35,051 nucleotides of DNA from a virus, in IMG/VR virus record IMGVR_UViG_3300026519_000038, positions 1-35,051 of that record; one strand, given 5' to 3'. Below the pieces are notes generated by a model that worked only from the letters and a program-made list of their open reading frames with translations, was not told where the DNA came from and ran no database searches. A program made the position numbers and the translations under genes. Below, piece by piece: positions 5,329 to 33,042 of this stretch. How positions within the stretch are numbered: the first letter of the stretch is position 1; each line of letters starts with the position of its first letter.

Positions 5329-5589
5329 ATGGAAAAATATTTAGTGATACGTTACCATGTTGGTGACAAAGATTATTATGAAGGAGACATACGCACTGCG
5401 CGCAAAATTGATGTTTCACATTTGATCGGCACATGCTTAGAGCCTATAAGCAACAAAAAAGCGGCAAAGCCTGTCAAAAATAAAGCGGCAAAGCCTGTCA
5501 AAAATAAAGCGGCAAAGCCTGTCAAAAATAAAGCGGCAAAGCCTGTCAAAAATAAAGCGGCAAAGCCTGTCAAAAATAAGGCTATGTAA
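5329..5589 (+). CDS. small capsid-linked protein with lysine-rich octapeptide repeats
   Basis: This 86-residue protein has an N-terminal part of about 43 residues (MEKYLVIRYHVGDKDYYEGD) that resembles short proteins often found directly after the capsid gene in alphaproteobacterial phages. The C-terminal half is five copies of the octapeptide AAKPVKNK, a strongly basic, proline/alanine/lysine tail like that of histone H1-type linkers. It could touch DNA or the acidic capsid lining; that is inference. A GGAG ribosome binding site at 5316-5319 precedes ATG 5329. The stop codon overlaps the ATG of the next gene (TAATG). Confidence 0.75.
   Translation: MEKYLVIRYHVGDKDYYEGDIRTARKIDVSHLIGTCLEPISNKKAAKPVKNKAAKPVKNKAAKPVKNKAAKPVKNKAAKPVKNKAM
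5461..5580 (+). repeat. five 24-bp tandem repeats encoding AAKPVKNK
   Basis: Five head-to-tail copies of a 24-bp unit beginning GCGGCAAAGCCTGTC occupy this stretch; only the final base of the last unit differs. Because the unit is a multiple of three, copy-number change by slippage or recombination would lengthen or shorten the protein tail without breaking the frame. Confidence 0.95.
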
Positions 5590-19881: not shown

Positions 19882-19958
19882 TGGACCGCCCCGCCGGATT
19901 CGAACCGGCAACCTGTGAACTAGAAAATCACGGCTCTTTCCAGTTGGTCTAGGGGCGG
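19882..19958 (-). tRNA. tRNA-Arg(UCU)
   Basis: On the minus strand this has a 7-bp acceptor stem CCGCCCC/GGGGCGG, a T-arm GCCGG-TTCGAAT-CCGGC, variable loop AGGTT, discriminator T and encoded CCA. Counting standard positions places anticodon TCT at 34-36 with A37, flanked by GTGA/TCAC (the pair 31-39 is T-T). The D-stem (GACC against GAGC) has two mismatches, so function is not certain. It would read AGA and AGG, which the phage genes use often (for example in the first codons of terS). The first ten tRNA bases overlap the 3' end of the nuclease gene; that gene's TAG stop is tRNA positions 8-10. Confidence 0.7.
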
Positions 19959-20611
19959 GTGATTGGTTTATCTGCCTCGTGACAATTACGCATTCGCAAG
20001 GCGCTACAGATACCCTTGGTAATCTGTGATCCGGTTGCATTCCAACGCAAAGCCGTAACCATGGTAGGCATTCTGGCACGTTTGGGCAGCGGGAGTTTTA
20101 AGTTGCAGCAAAGATTATAAAGTTCATCACGCCAAAGCAAGTGAACCGCATCATCTGGTAGTGGTTGTTGAATGCATTGGTCAAAATCTAACCATTTCGA
20201 CATACGGTCATATTTGGGGTTCGCACTTCTTTGTTTTATCGGATAAACCCAAGGCGTCGCCCCCCTGCATTCGCTCGGAACGCTGCGTAAGAAAAATGAC
20301 CCGTCCAGTTCATAGTGGGCTGCGTGTTGGTTGGTTTTTTTCTCAACTAGGAACTTTTCGTGAAATGCGATTGCAACGTGGTGTGAACAATTCAACATAG
20401 ATTTAATTTGAGCCGGTGCGCGCTCAAGTTTATCTTTTTTGCTTTTGATTTCAACTGATATTATTTCAGCTATATCTACGGCCATTACATCAACCCTATT
20501 AATCCCGCCACCAACATTGATTTCGTGAATGATTCGGGCGTTTGGGCGCATTTTACGCAACCTATCAACAACGCAACTCCTGATTTCCTGCTCGGCTTCA
20601 CTTCGTCGCAT
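19949..20611 (-). CDS. PD-(D/E)XK nuclease-like protein
   Basis: This 220-residue protein carries the restriction-endonuclease fold signature in its N-terminal third: E30, then GGGINRVDVMAV with D41, then SVEIKSKKDK with E54 and K56, and Q68. This suits a VRR-NUC/MmcB-like DNA nuclease that could act in recombination or host DNA breakdown. The C-terminal half has scattered cysteines and no recognised domain. It is the last gene of the minus-strand operon and runs into the tRNA-Arg gene. Its ribosome binding site (AAAGGAGAA) is formed by the last codons of the gene upstream. Confidence 0.7.
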   Translation of the reverse strand: MRRSEAEQEIRSCVVDRLRKMRPNARIIHEINVGGGINRVDVMAVDIAEIISVEIKSKKDKLERAPAQIKSMLNCSHHVAIAFHEKFLVEKKTNQHAAHYELDGSFFLRSVPSECRGATPWVYPIKQRSANPKYDRMSKWLDFDQCIQQPLPDDAVHLLWRDELYNLCCNLKLPLPKRARMPTMVTALRWNATGSQITKGICSALRMRNCHEADKPITRP

Positions 20612-23056: not shown

Positions 23057-24115
23057 TTAATTAAATTTTATCGGCATCAACGCGCATGTTGTGTCTTGAT
23101 CCGTGCCGGTTATTAAAAATGGGTCAGTCGCTCCATTTCCTGAAATATTCACTGGGCCAAGTTCCGCCACAAGCGGCTTTAATAAGGCGTTATTTAGACC
23201 AAAAGACGCGCCAACACCGACCTTTACACCTGCGGTAACCTGCGACCCGTCAAAATCAATGCTTTGTGTGATAGTCCCTGATTCTGGGTTGATTTTGATT
23301 GTCTTGGCGTCAAATTTCCGCAAGCAAGATATATCCAGATCAACCGATATTTTATTGCTTGGCTTTGGGATTAACTTTTGCACATCTGGAAATTTACAGT
23401 CAATCGTCTTGGATCGTAAAATGCCGTGTTTTGTTTTGAATGTCACTTTGTTATCTTTGTGCAATGCAATATCCACAGACCCGTTGCCTTTTTTGTCTAA
23501 CATAGCCAGCAAAATTTTGACAGTTGAAGCTGGCAGAATGAAGCCGTCACCAGTCCACGCAAAACCTGTTTTCACCCGCATTAGTCGGTGCCCATCCGTT
23601 GCAGCCAACGCCAGCTTTCCGTCAATCGAATGGAAGTAAACGCTGTTCAGGTAAAAACGGGTCATTACGGCTGAAATGCAAGTTCTAACCCGCCGCAATA
23701 GCCGGTGCAATTCGGCCTCTGGAATTGATACCCGTTCGACAGGCGGGCCAACTTTCAATTCCGGTTGATCGCTGGCATCAATGCCAAGATATACGGTCAG
23801 AACGTCACGCCCAACCTTTAAGGTCAAATAATCAGCCTTAACTGAAATGCTAACTTCACCAGACAAACAATTCAAAAACCGAAGCATATTATTCGGCTGA
23901 AACATAATATCAAAATCGCCCTTACCGCTTCCGGCAATATGGGTTGTGATATGCTGATCAAGGTTTGTTCCTTGCAGCCGTAAATCGCCTCTAAAAACAG
24001 TCATTCGCATCAGGCACAGAATCGGCACTGCTGCGCGACGCTCAATAGACAGTTTTGTCATTTTAACTGCATCGTGCAGTTCTTTTGTGTCTACAGTTAT
24101 TTTTGCGTTTGTCAT
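23057..24115 (-). CDS. dnaN: DNA polymerase III beta subunit (sliding clamp) homologue
   Basis: This 352-residue protein has the three-domain clamp layout. Recognisable parts are RFYLNSVYFHSIDGKL and ALAATDGHRLMRVK (domain 2, like the E. coli RYYLNGMLF and VATDGHRLA segments), FPDVQKLIPK (domain 3 start, like FPDYRRVLP), and the end CALMPIKFN (like VVMPMRL). The length is close to the bacterial protein (366). It would hold the host replicative polymerase on phage DNA, as no polymerase is encoded here. Its ribosome binding site is CGGAGAA just before ATG 24115. Confidence 0.9.
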   Translation of the reverse strand: MTNAKITVDTKELHDAVKMTKLSIERRAAVPILCLMRMTVFRGDLRLQGTNLDQHITTHIAGSGKGDFDIMFQPNNMLRFLNCLSGEVSISVKADYLTLKVGRDVLTVYLGIDASDQPELKVGPPVERVSIPEAELHRLLRRVRTCISAVMTRFYLNSVYFHSIDGKLALAATDGHRLMRVKTGFAWTGDGFILPASTVKILLAMLDKKGNGSVDIALHKDNKVTFKTKHGILRSKTIDCKFPDVQKLIPKPSNKISVDLDISCLRKFDAKTIKINPESGTITQSIDFDGSQVTAGVKVGVGASFGLNNALLKPLVAELGPVNISGNGATDPFLITGTDQDTTCALMPIKFN

Positions 24116-28492: not shown

Positions 28493-28569
28493 ATCGAAAA
28501 TACCGCCGTTGTTCCTGCCCATATAATAGCCAGCATAAAAGCGGCTTGGAATATTACCCTGATTTTCAT
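28489..28569 (-). CDS. 26-residue membrane peptide
   Basis: This short gene has ATGA overlaps at both ends, with the acidic protein upstream and the next gene downstream. The peptide starts MKIRVIFQAAFMLAIIWAG and is one membrane-spanning or signal-type helix. The overlaps are the main support; function is unknown. Confidence 0.5.
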   Translation of the reverse strand: MKIRVIFQAAFMLAIIWAGTTAVFSI

Positions 28570-28829
28570 AGTAAATCTACCTTTCCAAGAACATGTTCGG
28601 CGTTATGATCAACATCCGCCCAATCTGCATTGATCGCGGCGTAAAAATCACCGTGCAATTCGTCTACCGCTGATTCGAAATCAACAGCCGCGCTTTCCGC
28701 ATCCCCTGCATCATTGGCATTATGCAACCGCAACAGCGCGTCAATTACCGTTGGTATTGCATCATCTGGATCATGAAATGCGGCTATTAAAAGCTTTGCC
28801 ATTTTTTCTTGCTGGTCGTTCATTTGCAT
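28566..28829 (-). CDS. acidic hypothetical protein
   Basis: This 87-residue protein is acidic and helical (LIAAFHDPDDAIPTVIDALL, then AGDAESAAVDFESAVDEL). It starts in a TAATG overlap with the heptad repeat gene, with MNDQQEK six bases further as an alternative start. No family was recognised. Acidic small early proteins sometimes mimic DNA, but nothing here proves that. Confidence 0.62.
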   Translation of the reverse strand: MQMNDQQEKMAKLLIAAFHDPDDAIPTVIDALLRLHNANDAGDAESAAVDFESAVDELHGDFYAAINADWADVDHNAEHVLGKVDLL

Positions 28830-29323
28830 TACGAATCCTCACTGATGTGATCGACCAGATTGCTAGGCCGGTTTGTTATTTTATCTAGGTTGCCAGACAG
28901 GCCGGTGCAGTCGCCCCACAGGCCGGTACATTTGCCCGACAGGTTTGAGCATTTGCCAGACAGGCCGGTGCAGTCGCCACGCAGGTCGGTGCAGTCGCCA
29001 AACAGGTCGGTGCATTTGCCAGACAGGTCGGTGCAGTCGCCGCGCAGGTTTGAGCATTTGCCAGACAGGTTTGTGCAGTCACCGCGCAGGTCGGTGCAGT
29101 TGCCAGACAGGTTGGTGCAGTCGCCACGCAGGTTGGAGCATTTGCCAAACAGGTTGGTGCAGTCGCCACGCAGGCTGGAGCAGTTGCCAAACAGGCCGGT
29201 GCAGTCACCAGACAGGTTTGAGCAGTCGCCATACATATTCTCATTCGGGCCGGTTATTTTTTTGCCATCAATAAAGTGGTACAGGTTTGAGGTCGAGCGA
29301 GTTAGTGGTTTTTCATCTGTCAT
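28829..29323 (-). CDS. cysteine-heptad repeat protein A (16 repeats)
   Basis: This 164-residue protein has three parts: a 31-residue head (MTDEKPLTRSTSNLYHFIDG, ending NENMY), 16 perfect seven-residue repeats with consensus G-[DNK]-C-[TS]-x-L-[SRFW], and a 21-residue tail (GNLDKITNRPSNLVDHI). Every repeat carries one cysteine and one leucine, which suggests a right-handed beta solenoid with a cysteine ladder, reminiscent of pentapeptide-repeat folds but with period seven. I chose ATG 29323 behind CCGGAGAAATAAA. It is the first gene of the minus operon, directly after a strong promoter, so it is probably made early. Function unknown. A paralogue lies at 32124. Confidence 0.85.
   Translation of the reverse strand: MTDEKPLTRSTSNLYHFIDGKKITGPNENMYGDCSNLSGDCTGLFGNCSSLRGDCTNLFGKCSNLRGDCTNLSGNCTDLRGDCTNLSGKCSNLRGDCTDLSGKCTDLFGDCTDLRGDCTGLSGKCSNLSGKCTGLWGDCTGLSGNLDKITNRPSNLVDHISEDS
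28895..29230 (-). repeat. 16 tandem 21-bp units (cysteine heptads)
   Basis: The units vary around GGCGACTGCACCAACCTG plus a final codon for S, R, F or W. The whole array lacks stop codons in several frames on both strands, which creates long false reading frames opposite the real gene. Confidence 0.93.
29228..29323 (-). repeat. 96-bp inverted repeat arm, copy A
   Basis: This stretch is identical by my reading to 32124-32219 on the opposite strand. Together they form perfect inverted arms flanking about 2.8 kb that holds the divergent promoters, the RHH gene, the MazF-like gene and the replication genes. Confidence 0.9.
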
Positions 29324-29351
29324 TTTATTTCTCCGGTTTGATGTTTCCACA

Positions 29352-29380
29352 TTAATAGCAAATGACTTTCTTGCTGTCAA
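29352..29380 (-). promoter_or_regulatory. early leftward promoter
   Basis: On the minus strand a perfect TTGACA (29380-29375) and TATTAA (29357-29352) are separated by 17 bases. This is the strongest sigma-70 type promoter seen in the window. It lies about 30 bases before the heptad repeat gene and would drive the whole minus-strand operon. Confidence 0.8.
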
Positions 29381-29399
29381 CAAATAAATGCGGTTGACA
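29375..29399. promoter_or_regulatory. palindromic operator between divergent promoters
   Basis: TGTCAAC and GTTGACA form a perfect 7-bp inverted repeat with an 11-base spacer. Each arm contains the -35 box of one of the two divergent promoters. A dimeric repressor bound here would shut both. The RHH protein encoded next to it (29451) is the nearest candidate; the HTH protein at 33787 is another. Confidence 0.65.
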
Positions 29400-29422
29400 T
29401 TTAATAACATTGGATTTATCAG
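29394..29422 (+). promoter_or_regulatory. early rightward promoter
   Basis: TTGACA (29394-29399) and TATCAG (29417-29422) are separated by 17 bases, pointing toward the RHH gene. The -10 box is weaker than that of its leftward partner. Confidence 0.65.
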
Positions 29423-29450
29423 TATTGATGAAGAGCCGAAAGGAAAGATA

Positions 29451-29624
29451 ATGGCAAAAATAGCAAAATCAATTCATTTAGAGGCCGTGGAAATCGCGCA
29501 GATAGACGCTATGGCTGATAAAATCGGACATGGTGCGACATTCTCAAGTATGGCTCGGCAACTGATCATTGAGGGAATCGCAGCACGTTCTATGCCTGAA
29601 AAAGTAAAGGCCGCACCAGATTAA
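29451..29624 (+). CDS. ribbon-helix-helix regulator
   Basis: This 57-residue protein (MAKIAKSIHLEAVEIAQIDA, then SSMARQLIIEGI) has the beta-strand plus two-helix layout of Arc/CopG-type repressors. I chose ATG 29451 behind AGGAAAG; the longer frame would begin inside the promoter. Its place next to the divergent promoters and their palindromic operator suggests that it controls the early switch. Confidence 0.7.
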   Translation: MAKIAKSIHLEAVEIAQIDAMADKIGHGATFSSMARQLIIEGIAARSMPEKVKAAPD

Positions 29625-29636
29625 CGATGCGGCCTT
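29607..29636 (+). terminator. hairpin after the RHH gene
   Basis: AAGGCCGCA (29607-29615) and TGCGGCCTT (29628-29636) form a perfect 9-bp stem that starts inside the end of the RHH gene. No T-run follows, so it may be an attenuator or an mRNA-stabilising structure rather than a true terminator. Confidence 0.5.
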
Positions 29637-29724
29637 GCGCTTGACCAACAGGCCCGGAGAAGAGCCACAACAAGCACAAAGACGATTACACACGACAATT
29701 TAACATGTCAAATGGAAAAATCAC

Positions 29725-29928
29725 ATGAGCATTAAATTAGACGCGGCAGAAGCAGTTACAAACGCCGCAATCGGATTTCTGGTGTCAGTTGCCGCAACGT
29801 ATTGGCTGTTGCCGTTATGGGGGCTTGTTGCCAGCGTTGGGCAGAGTTTTGGGATAACGGCCATGTTTTTTGCAATATCAACCACGCGGTCGTTCATTCT
29901 GCGCCGGTTATTCAGGGGAATGAAATAA
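29725..29928 (+). CDS. small two-helix membrane protein, DUF7220-like
   Basis: This 67-residue protein has two hydrophobic stretches (AAIGFLVSVAATYWLLPLWG and ITAMFFAISTTRSFILR) and a basic end RRLFRGMK. The SxxRSFxLRRLF end is typical of a family of small phage and prophage membrane proteins that I recall as DUF7220. A very short frame (ATG 29706, seven codons) overlaps its start by ATGA and may couple translation. Function unknown. Confidence 0.68.
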   Translation: MSIKLDAAEAVTNAAIGFLVSVAATYWLLPLWGLVASVGQSFGITAMFFAISTTRSFILRRLFRGMK

Positions 29929-30005
29929 CAAGAATATCAATTCCAGATCATTATTACCTTTATTTATGAAAGGGTCATATTGTTGGAAGTCTGGAGTTGA
30001 TTGCC

Positions 30006-30046
30006 GCTGGCACGGGCTGAACCCTAGACCCGAAACCCGTGCCAGC
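30006..30046 (+). promoter_or_regulatory. long-stem hairpin in the leader of the MazF-like gene
   Basis: GCTGGCACGGG and CCCGTGCCAGC form a perfect 11-bp stem with a 19-base loop, 22 bases before the start at 30069 and just before its CGGAGG site. It could regulate translation, protect the mRNA, or be a protein binding site. The rest of the gap 29929-30068 shows nothing else I recognise. Confidence 0.6.
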
Positions 30047-30068
30047 AACCATATAACCGGAGGTTAAA

Positions 30069-30518
30069 ATGACATATAAAACACCCCAAGAGCAGGTCCG
30101 CGCATTGATGCATGATGTTTCCGAGGCCAAAAAGGAAACTTACACCAAGGGCGAGGTCAAAAACATTCTAAATTCTGTGGCGTCATTATCCGACCTTGGC
30201 AATCACACGCAGGAAATAGCCGGAATACGGAGAGGTGATGTATTCATCGCAAAAATGGTTGGCGGAAAAGTCAGGCCGTGGGTTGTGTTGTCTGTCCGCA
30301 GCGAGATTGTCTGTGCCGTTTGTATGTCTGGTGGCGACCGCGCCCCGCATATGACTAAATCAGAATGCCGCCTATGGCCCGGATCATGGATTGGCAGCAC
30401 CGTCAGCTTATTTGCTGAATCATTGGCCGCAAAAGCTGTTACCCGCCCATATACGAATGCGGCCCACCTTCGCGATATTGAACGTAAGGTTTCCGGGCTA
30501 TTTGATTTGCGAAAGTAG
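30069..30518 (+). CDS. MazF/PemK-like protein
   Basis: This 149-residue protein has a helical N-terminal extension of about 50 residues (TYTKGEVKNILNSVASLSDL), then the start of a PemK/MazF-type fold: IRRGDVFIAKMVGGKVRPWV (residues 53-72) followed by VLSVRSEIVCAVCMS. That RGDVF...RPxVVL pattern is typical of MazF toxins, which cut mRNA, but the rest of the domain is divergent. No obvious antitoxin gene is adjacent. It may be a toxin-derived host-takeover nuclease or an inactive fold. Confidence 0.55.
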   Translation: MTYKTPQEQVRALMHDVSEAKKETYTKGEVKNILNSVASLSDLGNHTQEIAGIRRGDVFIAKMVGGKVRPWVVLSVRSEIVCAVCMSGGDRAPHMTKSECRLWPGSWIGSTVSLFAESLAAKAVTRPYTNAAHLRDIERKVSGLFDLRK

Positions 30519-30524
30519 CTTTGC

Positions 30525-30562
30525 AAAAAAACGGCGGGGATTACCGATGTAATCAGCCCGCC
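30525..30562 (-). terminator. Rho-independent terminator, minus strand
   Basis: A strong hairpin (GGCGGG-GATTAC against GTAATC-CCCGCC, loop CGAT, two-base bulge) at 30533-30562 is followed on the minus strand by seven T (30531-30525). It is oriented to stop leftward transcription, although no leftward gene is recognised to its right. Confidence 0.7.
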
Positions 30563-30632
30563 AAGTTAGAGGCAACAGGGGAGAAAGGTGTTGCTGATAT
30601 TCAGATACACCAATAAATTGCGCAAGTCAAGC

Positions 30633-30672
30633 AAAAAGCCCCCGCCTGAATAAACTGACGGGGGCTTGTTTT
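30633..30672 (+). terminator. bidirectional terminator
   Basis: AAGCCCCCG (30636-30644) and CGGGGGCTT (30659-30667) form a 9-bp GC-rich stem with a 14-base loop. On the plus strand GTTTT follows; on the minus strand a run of T follows. It probably ends the transcript that starts at the rightward early promoter. Confidence 0.78.
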
Positions 30673-30724
30673 CCCAGTTGGTGACTGGTAACGTGAGTGC
30701 AATACCAATGCAGGTTCTTGATAG

Positions 30725-30740
30725 CACAATGTGGATTGTG
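30725..30740. promoter_or_regulatory. inverted repeat, possible operator
   Basis: CACAAT-GTGG-ATTGTG is a perfect 6-bp inverted repeat between the terminator and the replication genes. It could be the operator of the promoter expected in this gap. I could not find a convincing -35/-10 pair around it. Confidence 0.4.
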
Positions 30741-30790
30741 TTTGCAAGCCCTGCCCAATAAAGGGGGCAAAATATGTCACAGAAAACTAA

Positions 30791-30880
30791 ATGAGTATCG
30801 GCGCAAACTGGTATCCACGTGATCCGCGTAAGTTCATTGCTGGTGTCAAGGGCATGACCTTCAAGGAGTGTAACGCATGA
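30791..30880 (+). CDS. 29-residue remnant resembling a DUF1376 N-terminus
   Basis: The peptide starts MSIGANWYPRDPRKFIAGVK and continues GMTFKECNA before stopping. A WYPRDPxxFxxGxxGMTxxE opening is, to my recollection, that of DUF1376 replication-region proteins, which normally run on for more than 100 residues. Here the frame ends in an ATGA overlap with the replication initiator, so it probably survives as a coupling leader peptide. Confidence 0.5.
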   Translation: MSIGANWYPRDPRKFIAGVKGMTFKECNA

Positions 30881-31611
30881 GTCATAAAGCAACAGGATGG
30901 CTAGCGGACGTTGAAAACGTAACACCTTCAGAGTTCCGCATCCTATTTATTCTATGCGATTGCCACAACCCAAGCAAGGGTTGCTTCCCGTCGCAGGGGT
31001 ATCTTAAAACAAAAAGCGGTATGTCAAATGGGTCTATCAACAACCAGTTAAAATCCTTAGAAGGTAAGGGGCTTATTACCCGCAAGAAACGCACAAACCC
31101 ACAGACAAAACAAATCATGTCTACCATGTATATTTTAGGGTTTGATCTGCTAAAGCCTACTCCAAATTCTGGAGAGGTGGCCTTCTCCAATCTAGACCCA
31201 AAGCCTTCTCCAAAAAACGGGCAAAGCCTTCTCCAGAATTTGGAGACTAACCTTGTAAAGGAACCTTGTAATGAACCTGTAACTATAAAGATTGATTTCA
31301 AAGTATTTTGGACCGAATGGCCAAATAAGGTAGCCAAGCCAAAAGCTAAGATCGCTTGGGAAAAATTAAAGGCAAAAGACCAACATGCAATTATGGCATT
31401 GCCGAGCGCAGGCTTTGAATCGTGGCAAGCATCCGCACCGCAAGGGGCAAACCCCGTTCATCCGGCGTCTTTTTTAAATCAGAGGCGATGGGAAGATGAA
31501 CCAATTTTAACAAACGGAGGCCACAATGGGCACGGAAATTACAGCAACGGGCAAGCGCGCGGCGATGCTCAACTCGATGCGGCCAAGGAAAGAGCAATTA
31601 GGCTCGCATGA
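30877..31611 (+). CDS. O-like replication initiator with winged helix
   Basis: This 244-residue protein has an N-terminal winged-helix domain of the phage replisome-organiser type: VTPSEFRILFILCDCHNPSK, then CFPSQGYLKTKSGMSNGSIN and LKSLEGKGLITRKKR. A linker follows, then FWTEWPNKVAKPKAKIAW, a segment common in the C-terminal part of phage O-like proteins. It would bind the phage origin, which in lambda lies inside the O gene; repeats that would mark an origin are not obvious here. Its 3' end overlaps the next gene by 86 bases. Confidence 0.75.
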   Translation: MSHKATGWLADVENVTPSEFRILFILCDCHNPSKGCFPSQGYLKTKSGMSNGSINNQLKSLEGKGLITRKKRTNPQTKQIMSTMYILGFDLLKPTPNSGEVAFSNLDPKPSPKNGQSLLQNLETNLVKEPCNEPVTIKIDFKVFWTEWPNKVAKPKAKIAWEKLKAKDQHAIMALPSAGFESWQASAPQGANPVHPASFLNQRRWEDEPILTNGGHNGHGNYSNGQARGDAQLDAAKERAIRLA

Positions 31612-32038
31612 TTTCAAGATGCACAGGGCTATGGTCGCATTTGAATTGGAAGTTGTATCAACAAAGATTGATCGTTTTGGGTGGGGTCAAATGTCGGAGG
31701 CAATGAAAGACCGGTTGACTTTGGACTGGATGGACGCGCTTGATCCGTATGGGCTTGATGAAATCAAGACGGCGTGTTCTGTGCTAATGGGCAGCAAGCC
31801 AAAGGACGCGACAAACGAACATCGGGTCAAGGCGGCTATTGTGGCAGGTCGGGCAAAAGCATTAGCAGCCCTTCCCAAGCCGTTACCATTGCCAGAGCCG
31901 GAAAGGCCAGAGCCTAGCGCTGCATCAAAAGAGCGTGTCAACGCGATGGTCGAAGACCTTTCGTCCGGGCTTAAAATGTCGAAGCCGCCTGTTATTTATA
32001 AATCACTACGCGGTGCAGCAATTGGTAAAATTACATGA
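31526..32038 (+). CDS. possible helicase loader (P-like position)
   Basis: This 170-residue protein starts at ATG 31526 behind ACGGAGG, inside the 3' end of the initiator gene. It is mostly helical (FGWGQMSEAMKDRLTLDWMD, then LDEIKTACSVLMGSKPKDAT and EHRVKAAIVAGRAKAL) with a proline-rich linker (KPLPLPEPERPEP). Its place after an O-like gene suggests a helicase loader or adaptor, but no sequence motif proves it. Confidence 0.55.
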   Translation: MGTEITATGKRAAMLNSMRPRKEQLGSHDFKMHRAMVAFELEVVSTKIDRFGWGQMSEAMKDRLTLDWMDALDPYGLDEIKTACSVLMGSKPKDATNEHRVKAAIVAGRAKALAALPKPLPLPEPERPEPSAASKERVNAMVEDLSSGLKMSKPPVIYKSLRGAAIGKIT

Positions 32039-32123
32039 TAAGCCCAATGGTGCGACAGAATGACACATATGCAACTATGTGGTTTCCCTGCATAGTGATT
32101 TTAAAGCAAACCGGAGAAGCAAA

Positions 32124-32219
32124 ATGACAGATGAAAAACCACTAACTCGCTCGACCTCAAACCTGTACCACTTTATTGATGGCAAAAAAATAACCGGCCC
32201 GAATGAGAATATGTATGGC
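32124..32219 (+). repeat. 96-bp inverted repeat arm, copy B
   Basis: Partner of 29228-29323. Homologous recombination between the arms would invert the segment between them while leaving both repeat genes intact. Confidence 0.9.
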
Positions 32220-32702
32220 AAATGCTCCAACCTGCGTGGCGACTGCACCAACCTGTCTGGCAACTGCACATACCTGAGCGGTGACTGCACCGGCCTGTTT
32301 GGCGACTGCACTGGCCTGCGCGGCAACTGCACTGGCTTGCGCGGCAAATGCTCCAACCTGCGCGGCGAATGCTCCAGCCTGTCTGGCAACTGCACTGGCC
32401 TGCGCGGCGACTGCACTGGCTTGCGCGGCGACTGCACCGACCTGTCTGGCAAATGCACCGACCTGTTTGGCGACTGCACATACCTGTGGGGTGACTGCAC
32501 CGATCTGACTGGTGACTGCACCAACCTGTTTGGCAAATGTACCGGCCTGCGCGGCGACTGCACCGACCTGTCTGGCAAATGCACCGGCCTGTTTGGCAAC
32601 TGCTCAAACCTGTTTGGCAACTGCACATACCTGTCTGGCAATCTTGACGAAATAACAAACCGGCCTAGCAATCTGGTCGATCACATCAAACCGGAGAAAT
32701 AA
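32124..32702 (+). CDS. cysteine-heptad repeat protein B (20 repeats)
   Basis: This 192-residue paralogue of the protein at 28829-29323 is encoded on the opposite strand. Its first 32 residues are identical, and the first 96 bases are identical too. Twenty cysteine heptads follow (for example GDCTNLS, GNCTYLS, GKCTDLF), four more than in A, then the tail GNLDEITNRPSNLVDHIKPEK ends it. The last codons (ATCAAACCGGAGAAATAA) are the same leader that stands before protein A, and here supply the ribosome binding site for the next gene. ATG 32124 is chosen to match A. Confidence 0.85.
   Translation: MTDEKPLTRSTSNLYHFIDGKKITGPNENMYGKCSNLRGDCTNLSGNCTYLSGDCTGLFGDCTGLRGNCTGLRGKCSNLRGECSSLSGNCTGLRGDCTGLRGDCTDLSGKCTDLFGDCTYLWGDCTDLTGDCTNLFGKCTGLRGDCTDLSGKCTGLFGNCSNLFGNCTYLSGNLDEITNRPSNLVDHIKPEK
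32217..32636 (+). repeat. 20 tandem 21-bp units (cysteine heptads)
   Basis: The units vary around GGCGACTGCACCGACCTG plus a final codon. Variation is concentrated in the D/N/K, T/S and last positions, while G, C and L stay fixed. This shows selection on the protein repeat rather than simple recent amplification. Confidence 0.93.
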
Positions 32703-32703
32703 A

Positions 32704-33042
32704 ATGACTGATCATTACAAAAAAATGGCAGACGATCTAAAAGGCGTCAAGGTCGGAGCCAAAAAGGAATCGGCTCTTGCAAAGCGGGTAAGAGCGGCAG
32801 AGGCTACCGGCGCTGCGGAGCGTCAGGCCCATATCCTCGATAATCCAGAGGTTTATGGGTTGATGCGTGGACCCGTTGCGCTTGGCGATACCGGAAATGA
32901 ACTGGCATCTACTGCTTACAAGGATGGTTGGGAAGCTGCTAAAAAACGTGCTGCTGAAGATGTTTCCGAGTTGTTTAGTGATTTTTCTACAATAGCTAAA
33001 ACTGTGATCCTGTCTATCAATGCCATAAGGCCAAATTCGTAA
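32704..33042 (+). CDS. hypothetical early protein
   Basis: This 112-residue protein starts directly behind the repeat gene, with its GGAG site in the last codons of that gene. It is charged and helical (KKESALAKRVRAAEATGAAE) with NPEVYGLMRGPVALGDTGNE in the middle and a hydrophobic end (IAKTVILSINAI). No family was recognised. Confidence 0.65.
   Translation: MTDHYKKMADDLKGVKVGAKKESALAKRVRAAEATGAAERQAHILDNPEVYGLMRGPVALGDTGNELASTAYKDGWEAAKKRAAEDVSELFSDFSTIAKTVILSINAIRPNS

What the first reader, a model, noticed from the sequence alone, without database searches (positions are those of the whole stretch)
28829..32702. A pair of cysteine-heptad solenoid proteins of unknown function
Two genes encode proteins made almost wholly of seven-residue repeats, G-[DNK]-C-[TS]-x-L-x, with 16 and 20 copies. 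One cysteine recurs at the same place in every unit, so a solenoid fold would line up a ladder of 16 or 20 thiols, with a parallel leucine ladder inside. I recall valine or aspartate-rich heptads of a similar kind in uncharacterised phage proteins, but not a run with cysteine in every unit. One copy is the first gene behind the strongest early promoter, so it is probably made in quantity early. Possible roles: metal binding, redox buffering, or mimicry of a nucleic acid in the manner of pentapeptide-repeat proteins.
Basis: partly seen in the sequence, partly recalled or inferred. Interest (0 to 1): 0.82.

Follow-up and report, generated by a model that had tools for sequence, protein, structure and literature searches.

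The report
Phage cysteine-heptad repeat proteins, hypervariable arrays
Two genes of a bacterial virus encode repeat proteins with a cysteine in every seven-residue unit. They belong to an unnamed family found in about a hundred uncultured phages, whose repeats reshuffle and diversify much faster than their ends, which suggests a changeable binding surface used early in infection.

Summary
Gene A (28829-29323, -) and gene B (32124-32702, +) encode 16 and 20 units of G-[DNKE]-C-[ST]-x-L-x between conserved caps. They belong to a large phage family that no library names; GenBank phages hold one relative (MW202691). IMG/VR scans gave about 75 Cys-type and about 40 Val-type proteins with the same caps, neighbours and surface residues. 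Position 3 is Cys in 97.7% of interior units of Cys-type arrays. Arrays are nearly all-Cys or all-Val; Ala, Thr or Ile types are rare. Positions 5 and 7 vary more than synonymous sites (1.8 and 2.3 times in Cys-type), while positions 1, 3 and 6 are frozen. A and B have identical N-cap DNA (96/96 nt), but their unit order is unrelated. The genes lie in early recombination/replication modules. Best reading: an early cytoplasmic solenoid with Cys+Leu facing in and hypervariable residues facing out, binding an unknown target, probably host or defence machinery. Metal binding or redox buffering as the family's job is disfavoured, because Val-type relatives do without thiols. The beta-solenoid fold is only moderately supported (pLDDT 67; AF2 over-predicts it). 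The target is unknown.

The parts
28829..29323 (-). Gene A, 164 aa Cys-heptad protein (P0001), first gene of the leftward early operon
   Evidence: 16 contiguous heptads; GGAG 7 nt before ATG; stop overlaps the ATG of the next gene (TAATG)
29231..29323 (-). N-cap of A: MTDEKPLTRSTSNLYHFIDGKKITGPNENMY
   Evidence: DNA identical to the N-cap of B over the first 96 nt; family motif LYHF..G..I.GPN..M
28895..29230 (-). Array A, 16 heptads G-x-C-[ST]-x-L-x; 15 of 16 21-mers distinct
28829..28894 (-). C-cap of A: GNLDKITNRPSNLVDHISEDS (second of two C-cap types)
32124..32702 (+). Gene B, 192 aa Cys-heptad protein (P0002), downstream of replication-initiator gene 30877-31611
   Evidence: 20 contiguous heptads; GGAG at 32113-32116
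32124..32216 (+). N-cap of B, same sequence as in A
32217..32636 (+). Array B, 20 heptads; 19 of 20 21-mers distinct; unit order unrelated to array A
32637..32702 (+). C-cap of B: GNLDEITNRPSNLVDHIKPEK
29352..29380 (-). Candidate promoter of A: TTGACA - 17 bp - TATTAA with TGn before it
   Evidence: sequence read; not listed by the stricter scan; activity untested
29451..29624 (+). Divergent gene for a small Arc-like (ribbon-helix-helix) protein, possible regulator
   Evidence: phrog_3431, E 0.0019
28566..28829 (-). Next gene of A's operon, no family
32704..33042 (+). Next gene after B; its start region (acatcaaaccggagaaataaaATGAC) equals the leader of A, a trace of a former tandem copy

Best explanation
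A and B are members of an unnamed phage protein family: N-cap, a tandem array of 3 to 40 heptads, C-cap. Shown: the family, its two main core forms (Cys or Val at position 3), purifying selection on positions 1, 3 and 6, excess amino-acid variation at 5 and 7, fast array turnover against stable caps, and placement in early recombination/replication operons. Inferred: the array folds as a narrow beta-solenoid, perhaps two heptads per coil, with Cys (or Val) and Leu stacked inside and positions 2, 4, 5 and 7 outside. The residues at 5 and 7 form a changeable recognition face. The protein is made early, stays in the cytoplasm and binds and blocks or redirects a host or rival-phage target, most likely DNA-processing or defence machinery, much as pentapeptide-repeat proteins bind gyrase. 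Tandem repeats and the phage's own annealing recombinases could drive the reshuffling of units. Cysteine is mainly a core-packing residue.
For: Family and caps. Core strictness: Cys in 859 of 879 interior units (97.7%) and Val in 1.0% for 66 Cys-type arrays; Val 87.9% and Ala 8.3% for 35 Val-type arrays. Pattern scans: Cys 68 and Val 49 stretches, against 6 for Ala/Thr and 7 for Ile/Leu/Met/Phe, most of the last not family members. All other positions have the same composition in both forms, r 0.96-1.0. Diversification, Cys-type: pos 5 0.359 and pos 7 0.457 against synonymous 0.201, sign test p 5e-6 and 8e-8; inward nonsynonymous 0.039; Val-type alike. Turnover: A/B N-cap 96/96 nt identical with unit orders no better than shuffled; same for L024/L049, L022/L043, L027 copies, L044/L057 and L099 copies. 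Context: window operons; neighbours are Erf annealing proteins, RecE/YqaJ exonucleases, Gam-like and helicase families, 118 of 144 immediate neighbours on the same strand; pentapeptide-repeat genes directly behind the heptad gene in L062 and L072. Fold: strands spaced 14 residues apart, AF2.
Against: No target is known and no experiment exists. AF2 confidence is moderate or low, and AF2 over-predicts beta-solenoids for repeats (PMC11795689). No periodicity at a lag of two units and no parity of unit number supports a 14-residue coil. Excess variation at 5 and 7 could come partly from codon-level homogenisation of the rest rather than positive selection. No anti-defence gene was identified next to it, and the PADLOC scan is empty.
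Confidence: 0.42

Rival explanations
1. Thiol device: the cysteine ladder binds metal ions or buffers redox state, or forms cross-core disulphides.
For: Cysteine is almost invariant in Cys-type arrays (97.7%) and arrays are all-or-none. A second repeat type with Cys every third residue sits beside Cys-heptad genes in L015 and L018.
Against: Val-type relatives with the same caps, surface and neighbours have no thiols. Spacing of 7 gives no CxC or CxxC cluster. Unit number shows no parity (25 even, 21 odd). All-or-none arrays are also expected from amplification of one founder unit (codon uniformity).
Confidence: 0.1
2. DNA mimic that binds gyrase or another DNA-binding protein, as MfpA and Qnr are thought to do.
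For: Repeat solenoid placed among recombination genes; D/N at position 2 in 89% of units; mild net negative charge; pentapeptide-repeat genes directly behind heptad genes in L062 and L072.
Against: Charge is weak (-3 and -5 for the window proteins; mean -0.34 per heptad, some arrays positive) and position 7 is most often Arg (37%).
Confidence: 0.12
3. Virion component, such as a head decoration or minor head protein.
For: 24 of 42 members hit phrog_19577 'minor head protein', best E 2.5e-15. The best structure matches are right-handed beta-helices, including tailspikes.
Against: The window proteins match it poorly (E 0.0038 and 0.13). tblastn finds no such annotated gene in 50,697 phage records except cap-less coiled-coil look-alikes. 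None of the listed neighbour families is a head or tail family.
Confidence: 0.06
4. Low-complexity, mostly unfolded scaffold or condensate former; the unit pattern is kept but order does not matter.
For: High Gly, Asp and Ser content, length 6-34 units without preference, moderate or low AF2 confidence, unit order freely reshuffled.
Against: Strict conservation of the inward pattern and of both caps; Cys/Val alternatives look like core packing; excess variation at only two positions.
Confidence: 0.12

Closest known systems
UOF80481.1 of phage MW202691 (Caudoviricetes sp. ctkAd229, Manatee Spring), 'hypothetical protein'
   Same: Same family: N-cap LWHFAAGGARVGGPNPAM, 12 Cys heptads, C-cap GNLNDCDI; near SSB and HNH genes
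   Different: 133 aa, other C-cap type, no function assigned
Pentapeptide-repeat proteins (PF00805; MfpA, Qnr)
   Same: Small cytoplasmic repeat proteins with two inward residues per unit and variable outward ones (PMC10886550); such genes lie directly behind heptad genes in L062 and L072
   Different: 5-residue unit A(D/N)LXX, four-sided coil; none of the heptad proteins hits the Pfam models
Beta-solenoids with short units: grass ice-binding left-handed beta-roll (PF21300), ice-nucleation protein
   Same: About two heptads per predicted coil; weak hit to PF21300 for protein B (E 0.054) and 5 Val-type members (best E 0.00063)
   Different: Below the curated cut-off (14 of 30 bits for B); different inward spacing; no caps in common
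Antigen 43 and other right-handed parallel beta-helices
   Same: Best structural alignments of the AF2 model, Z 13.4 over 149 residues
   Different: Larger coils, secreted proteins, 13% identity, no Foldseek E below 1e-3
TAL-effector repeats (by analogy only, from memory)
   Same: Near-identical DNA units with two variable codons per unit, number of units variable
   Different: 34-residue helical units; no homology claimed; no nucleic-acid binding shown here

Membership tests
Pentapeptide-repeat proteins (PF00805) | Tandem five-residue A(D/N)LXX units recognised by Pfam models | tested here: not met
   No pentapeptide hit for P0001, P0002, L009, L118 or the Val-type set; the neighbours L062:7273-7680 and L072:2748-3248 do hit
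Major surface glycoprotein (PF02349) | Match to the whole domain of a fungal surface glycoprotein | tested here: not met
   Score is above cut-off (44 and 41 bits, cut-off 22) but the best stretch covers only positions 4-39 of 76, by C..L spacing
Grass antifreeze beta-roll (PF21300) | Score above the curated cut-off | tested here: not met
   14 bits, cut-off 30
Parallel beta-helix / beta-solenoid fold | Confident structure with stacked parallel coils | tested here: inconclusive
   AF2 mean pLDDT 67 (B) and 50 (Val-type L122); VIA Z 13.4 to Ag43b; no Foldseek match at E<=1e-3
Metallothionein-like metal binders | Clustered CxC/CxxC ligands | tested here: not met
   Array cysteines are exactly 7 residues apart
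Metallothionein-like metal binders | Bound metal | not testable with these tools
   Needs protein
Acidic DNA-mimic proteins | Strong net negative charge | tested here: not met
   -3 and -5; mean -0.34 per heptad
Phage minor head proteins (phrog_19577) | Significant full-profile match and place in head module | tested here: not met
   P0001 E 0.0038 over positions 93-187 of 378, P0002 E 0.13; genes lie in early modules
Known anti-phage defence proteins (PADLOC) | Profile match | tested here: not met
   0 of 41 members

The most novel reading that the evidence does not exclude
A phage-borne modular recognition solenoid: each 21-bp unit is a near-identical DNA cassette with two hypervariable residues, arrays are rebuilt by recombination between fixed caps, and the resulting surface is selected to match a changing host or defence target. 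The core can be built from stacked cysteines or stacked valines.
Probability: 0.25. Interest if true: 0.88.

Novelty: new variant of a known kind. Interest (0 to 1): 0.66.

Why it matters
Tandem-repeat proteins with a fixed frame and variable surface residues have given programmable binders (TAL effectors, ankyrins). A compact seven-residue version that phages reshuffle, with an all-cysteine or all-valine core, would be a new scaffold. It would also point to an early phage-host conflict that no annotation library sees. The Cys/Val pair is a natural experiment on what a buried thiol ladder is for.

Tried and rejected
The search for related loci with P0002 found no relatives; DNA patterns for three consecutive heptads worked instead. 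The Pfam MSG hit is a spacing coincidence. The Aeromonas plasmid hit is a low-complexity repeat in another context (SGGCETL). The Streptomyces hit lies in a giant coding sequence and was not pursued. The S-RIM2 and other GenBank phage hits are structural or coil-containing proteins without caps. Most genome contigs matches are chance; only L078, L083 and L084 carry caps. I rejected six hits in Desulfovibrio relatives because they lie in open frames of 750-1053 aa. Coiled coil: Cys and Leu would sit at a and d, but Gly at position 1 and often 5 and Ser/Thr at 4 speak against helix, and both AF2 models give strands. Tests for a coil length from lagged similarity or parity of unit number gave nothing. 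Literature search for the motif found no paper on it. The Val-type AF2 model was too poor to search with.
Full report
Observation. Gene A is 28829-29323 on the - strand (164 aa) and gene B is 32124-32702 on the + strand (192 aa). Exact units G-x-C-[ST]-x-L-x number 16 and 20, contiguous. Both starts follow a GGAG. A's stop overlaps the next start, and B's stop is one base from the next ATG. In front of A stands TTGACA-17-TATTAA with a TGn before the -10; its strength is unknown.

The setting. The window is a 35,051-base IMG/VR virus record. It encodes an HK97-type head module (terminase, portal), an amidase, a leftward operon with exonuclease, 3'-5' exonuclease, SSB, NinB and a sliding clamp, and a rightward operon with an O-like replication initiator and a VRR-type nuclease. 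A is the first gene of the leftward operon. B lies in the rightward one, two genes behind the initiator.

The family. Pfam, NCBIfam, PHROGs and PADLOC hold no model of it; the only Pfam score above cut-off is a partial match to fungal MSG. Among 50,697 phage records only MW202691 has a full relative. A DNA pattern for three consecutive Cys heptads found 68 stretches in IMG/VR and 16 in bacterial genomes, three of the latter real. The Val version found 49 more. Most complete members have the same plan: an N-cap with LYHF..G..I.GPN..M (shorter in some), the array, and one of two C-caps (GDLDDCEITDEERxxGIDIxxLI or IPASARPCNLSDWV; the window has a form of the second). Both C-caps occur with Cys and with Val arrays.

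The core. In 66 Cys-type arrays 859 of 879 interior units have Cys at position 3. In 35 Val-type arrays 88% have Val and 8% Ala. Mixed arrays are few. Scans for Ala/Thr or Ile/Leu/Met/Phe at this place found 6 and 7 stretches, one of the latter a true Ile-type relative (L144). At all other positions the two forms have the same residue use, r 0.96-1.0. So Cys and Val are alternatives at one buried place. I infer that the thiols are not what the family is for, though they may add something in the Cys form. Within an array, codons are nearly uniform but differ between phages (GGC/CTG here, GGT/TTG in L009, GGC/TTA/TGT in L008). Arrays therefore grow by amplification, which also makes all-or-none cores easy to reach.

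The surface. Within arrays, first and second codon positions of residues 5 and 7 differ at 0.359 and 0.457 per site, against 0.201 at synonymous sites and 0.039 at residues 1, 3 and 6. Sign tests over 56 Cys-type arrays give p 5e-6 and 8e-8, and Val-type arrays agree. Residue 7 is R, S, W, I, T, Y and others. This is the pattern expected if 5 and 7 face outward and are selected to differ, although homogenisation of the rest cannot be fully excluded.

Turnover. A and B are identical over the first 96 nt, and the C-cap shares a 39-nt identical core. Yet unit orders match no better than shuffled ones, and 15 of 16 and 19 of 20 units are distinct. The same contrast occurs in other phages: L024/L049 have N-caps 69/69 and C-caps 44/45 with unrelated arrays. 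Closer pairs are collinear with block gains or losses, such as 28 against 34 units in L023/L052. Linkage between variable codons is strongest inside a unit and weak across units, as recombination at about unit scale would leave. The leader of A equals the junction behind B, so A probably descends from a tandem copy behind B. Tandem copies exist in L027, L044/L057, L073 and L100.

Context elsewhere. Of 144 immediate neighbours 118 are on the same strand. The most frequent neighbour families are Erf annealing proteins, RecE/YqaJ exonucleases, recombinase, Gam-like and helicase families. In the Desulfovibrio contig L083 the gene sits beside an annealing protein, a 3'-5' exonuclease and a CI-like repressor (read from the translations). 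Pentapeptide-repeat genes follow directly in L062 and L072, and Cys-every-third-residue repeat genes sit beside it in L015 and L018.

Fold. AF2 with 41 relatives gives a beta-solenoid for B with strands 14 residues apart, mean pLDDT 67 and pTM 0.51. The Val-type model has pLDDT 50. Structural matches are generic right-handed beta-helices, best Z 13.4, with no Foldseek match at E<=1e-3. AF2 is known to over-predict this fold for repeats (PMC11795689). I give the solenoid about 0.7, resting more on the conserved inward pattern than on the model.

Mechanism. Shown: family, core alternatives, selection pattern, turnover, early operons. Inferred: solenoid, outward recognition face, cytoplasmic binder of a host or defence target, recombination-driven reshuffling. 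Not known: the partner. Rivals are a thiol device, a DNA mimic, a virion part, or a low-complexity scaffold.

Noticed in passing
L015:1486-2349 (-), L018:9947-10306 (+), L035:5247-5813 (+): Second kind of phage repeat protein with cysteine at every third residue (e.g. CTNCTDCKDC), with its own N-cap (G.Y.D..GNKW); beside the Cys-heptad gene in L015 and L018. No Pfam or NCBIfam match.
   Followed up: partly
L062:7273-7683 (+), L072:2748-3251 (+): Pentapeptide-repeat genes start directly behind a heptad gene, suggesting that different repeat proteins are deployed together.
   Followed up: partly
L025:11107-11673, L042:1-369, L045:5287-5991: Cys-heptad arrays fused to a shared C-terminal domain of about 70 aa (IWKYPIIKI...VGCLRF...) instead of the usual C-cap.
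   Followed up: no
window 5451-5579: Minisatellite of 24 bp, 5.4 copies, 98% matches, between structural genes.
   Followed up: no
window 23057-24115 (-): The phage carries its own DNA polymerase sliding-clamp homologue (phrog_947), as do several relatives with heptad genes (L019, L024, L049, L061).
   Followed up: no
L102, L110 (238 kb contig), L135 (116 kb contig): Large-phage contigs with long, irregular Val/Cys heptad proteins, often several per contig.
   Followed up: no
window 19882-19958 (-): A single tRNA-Arg(TCT) overlapping the end of an ORF at 19949-20611, possibly an attachment-site remnant.
   Followed up: no
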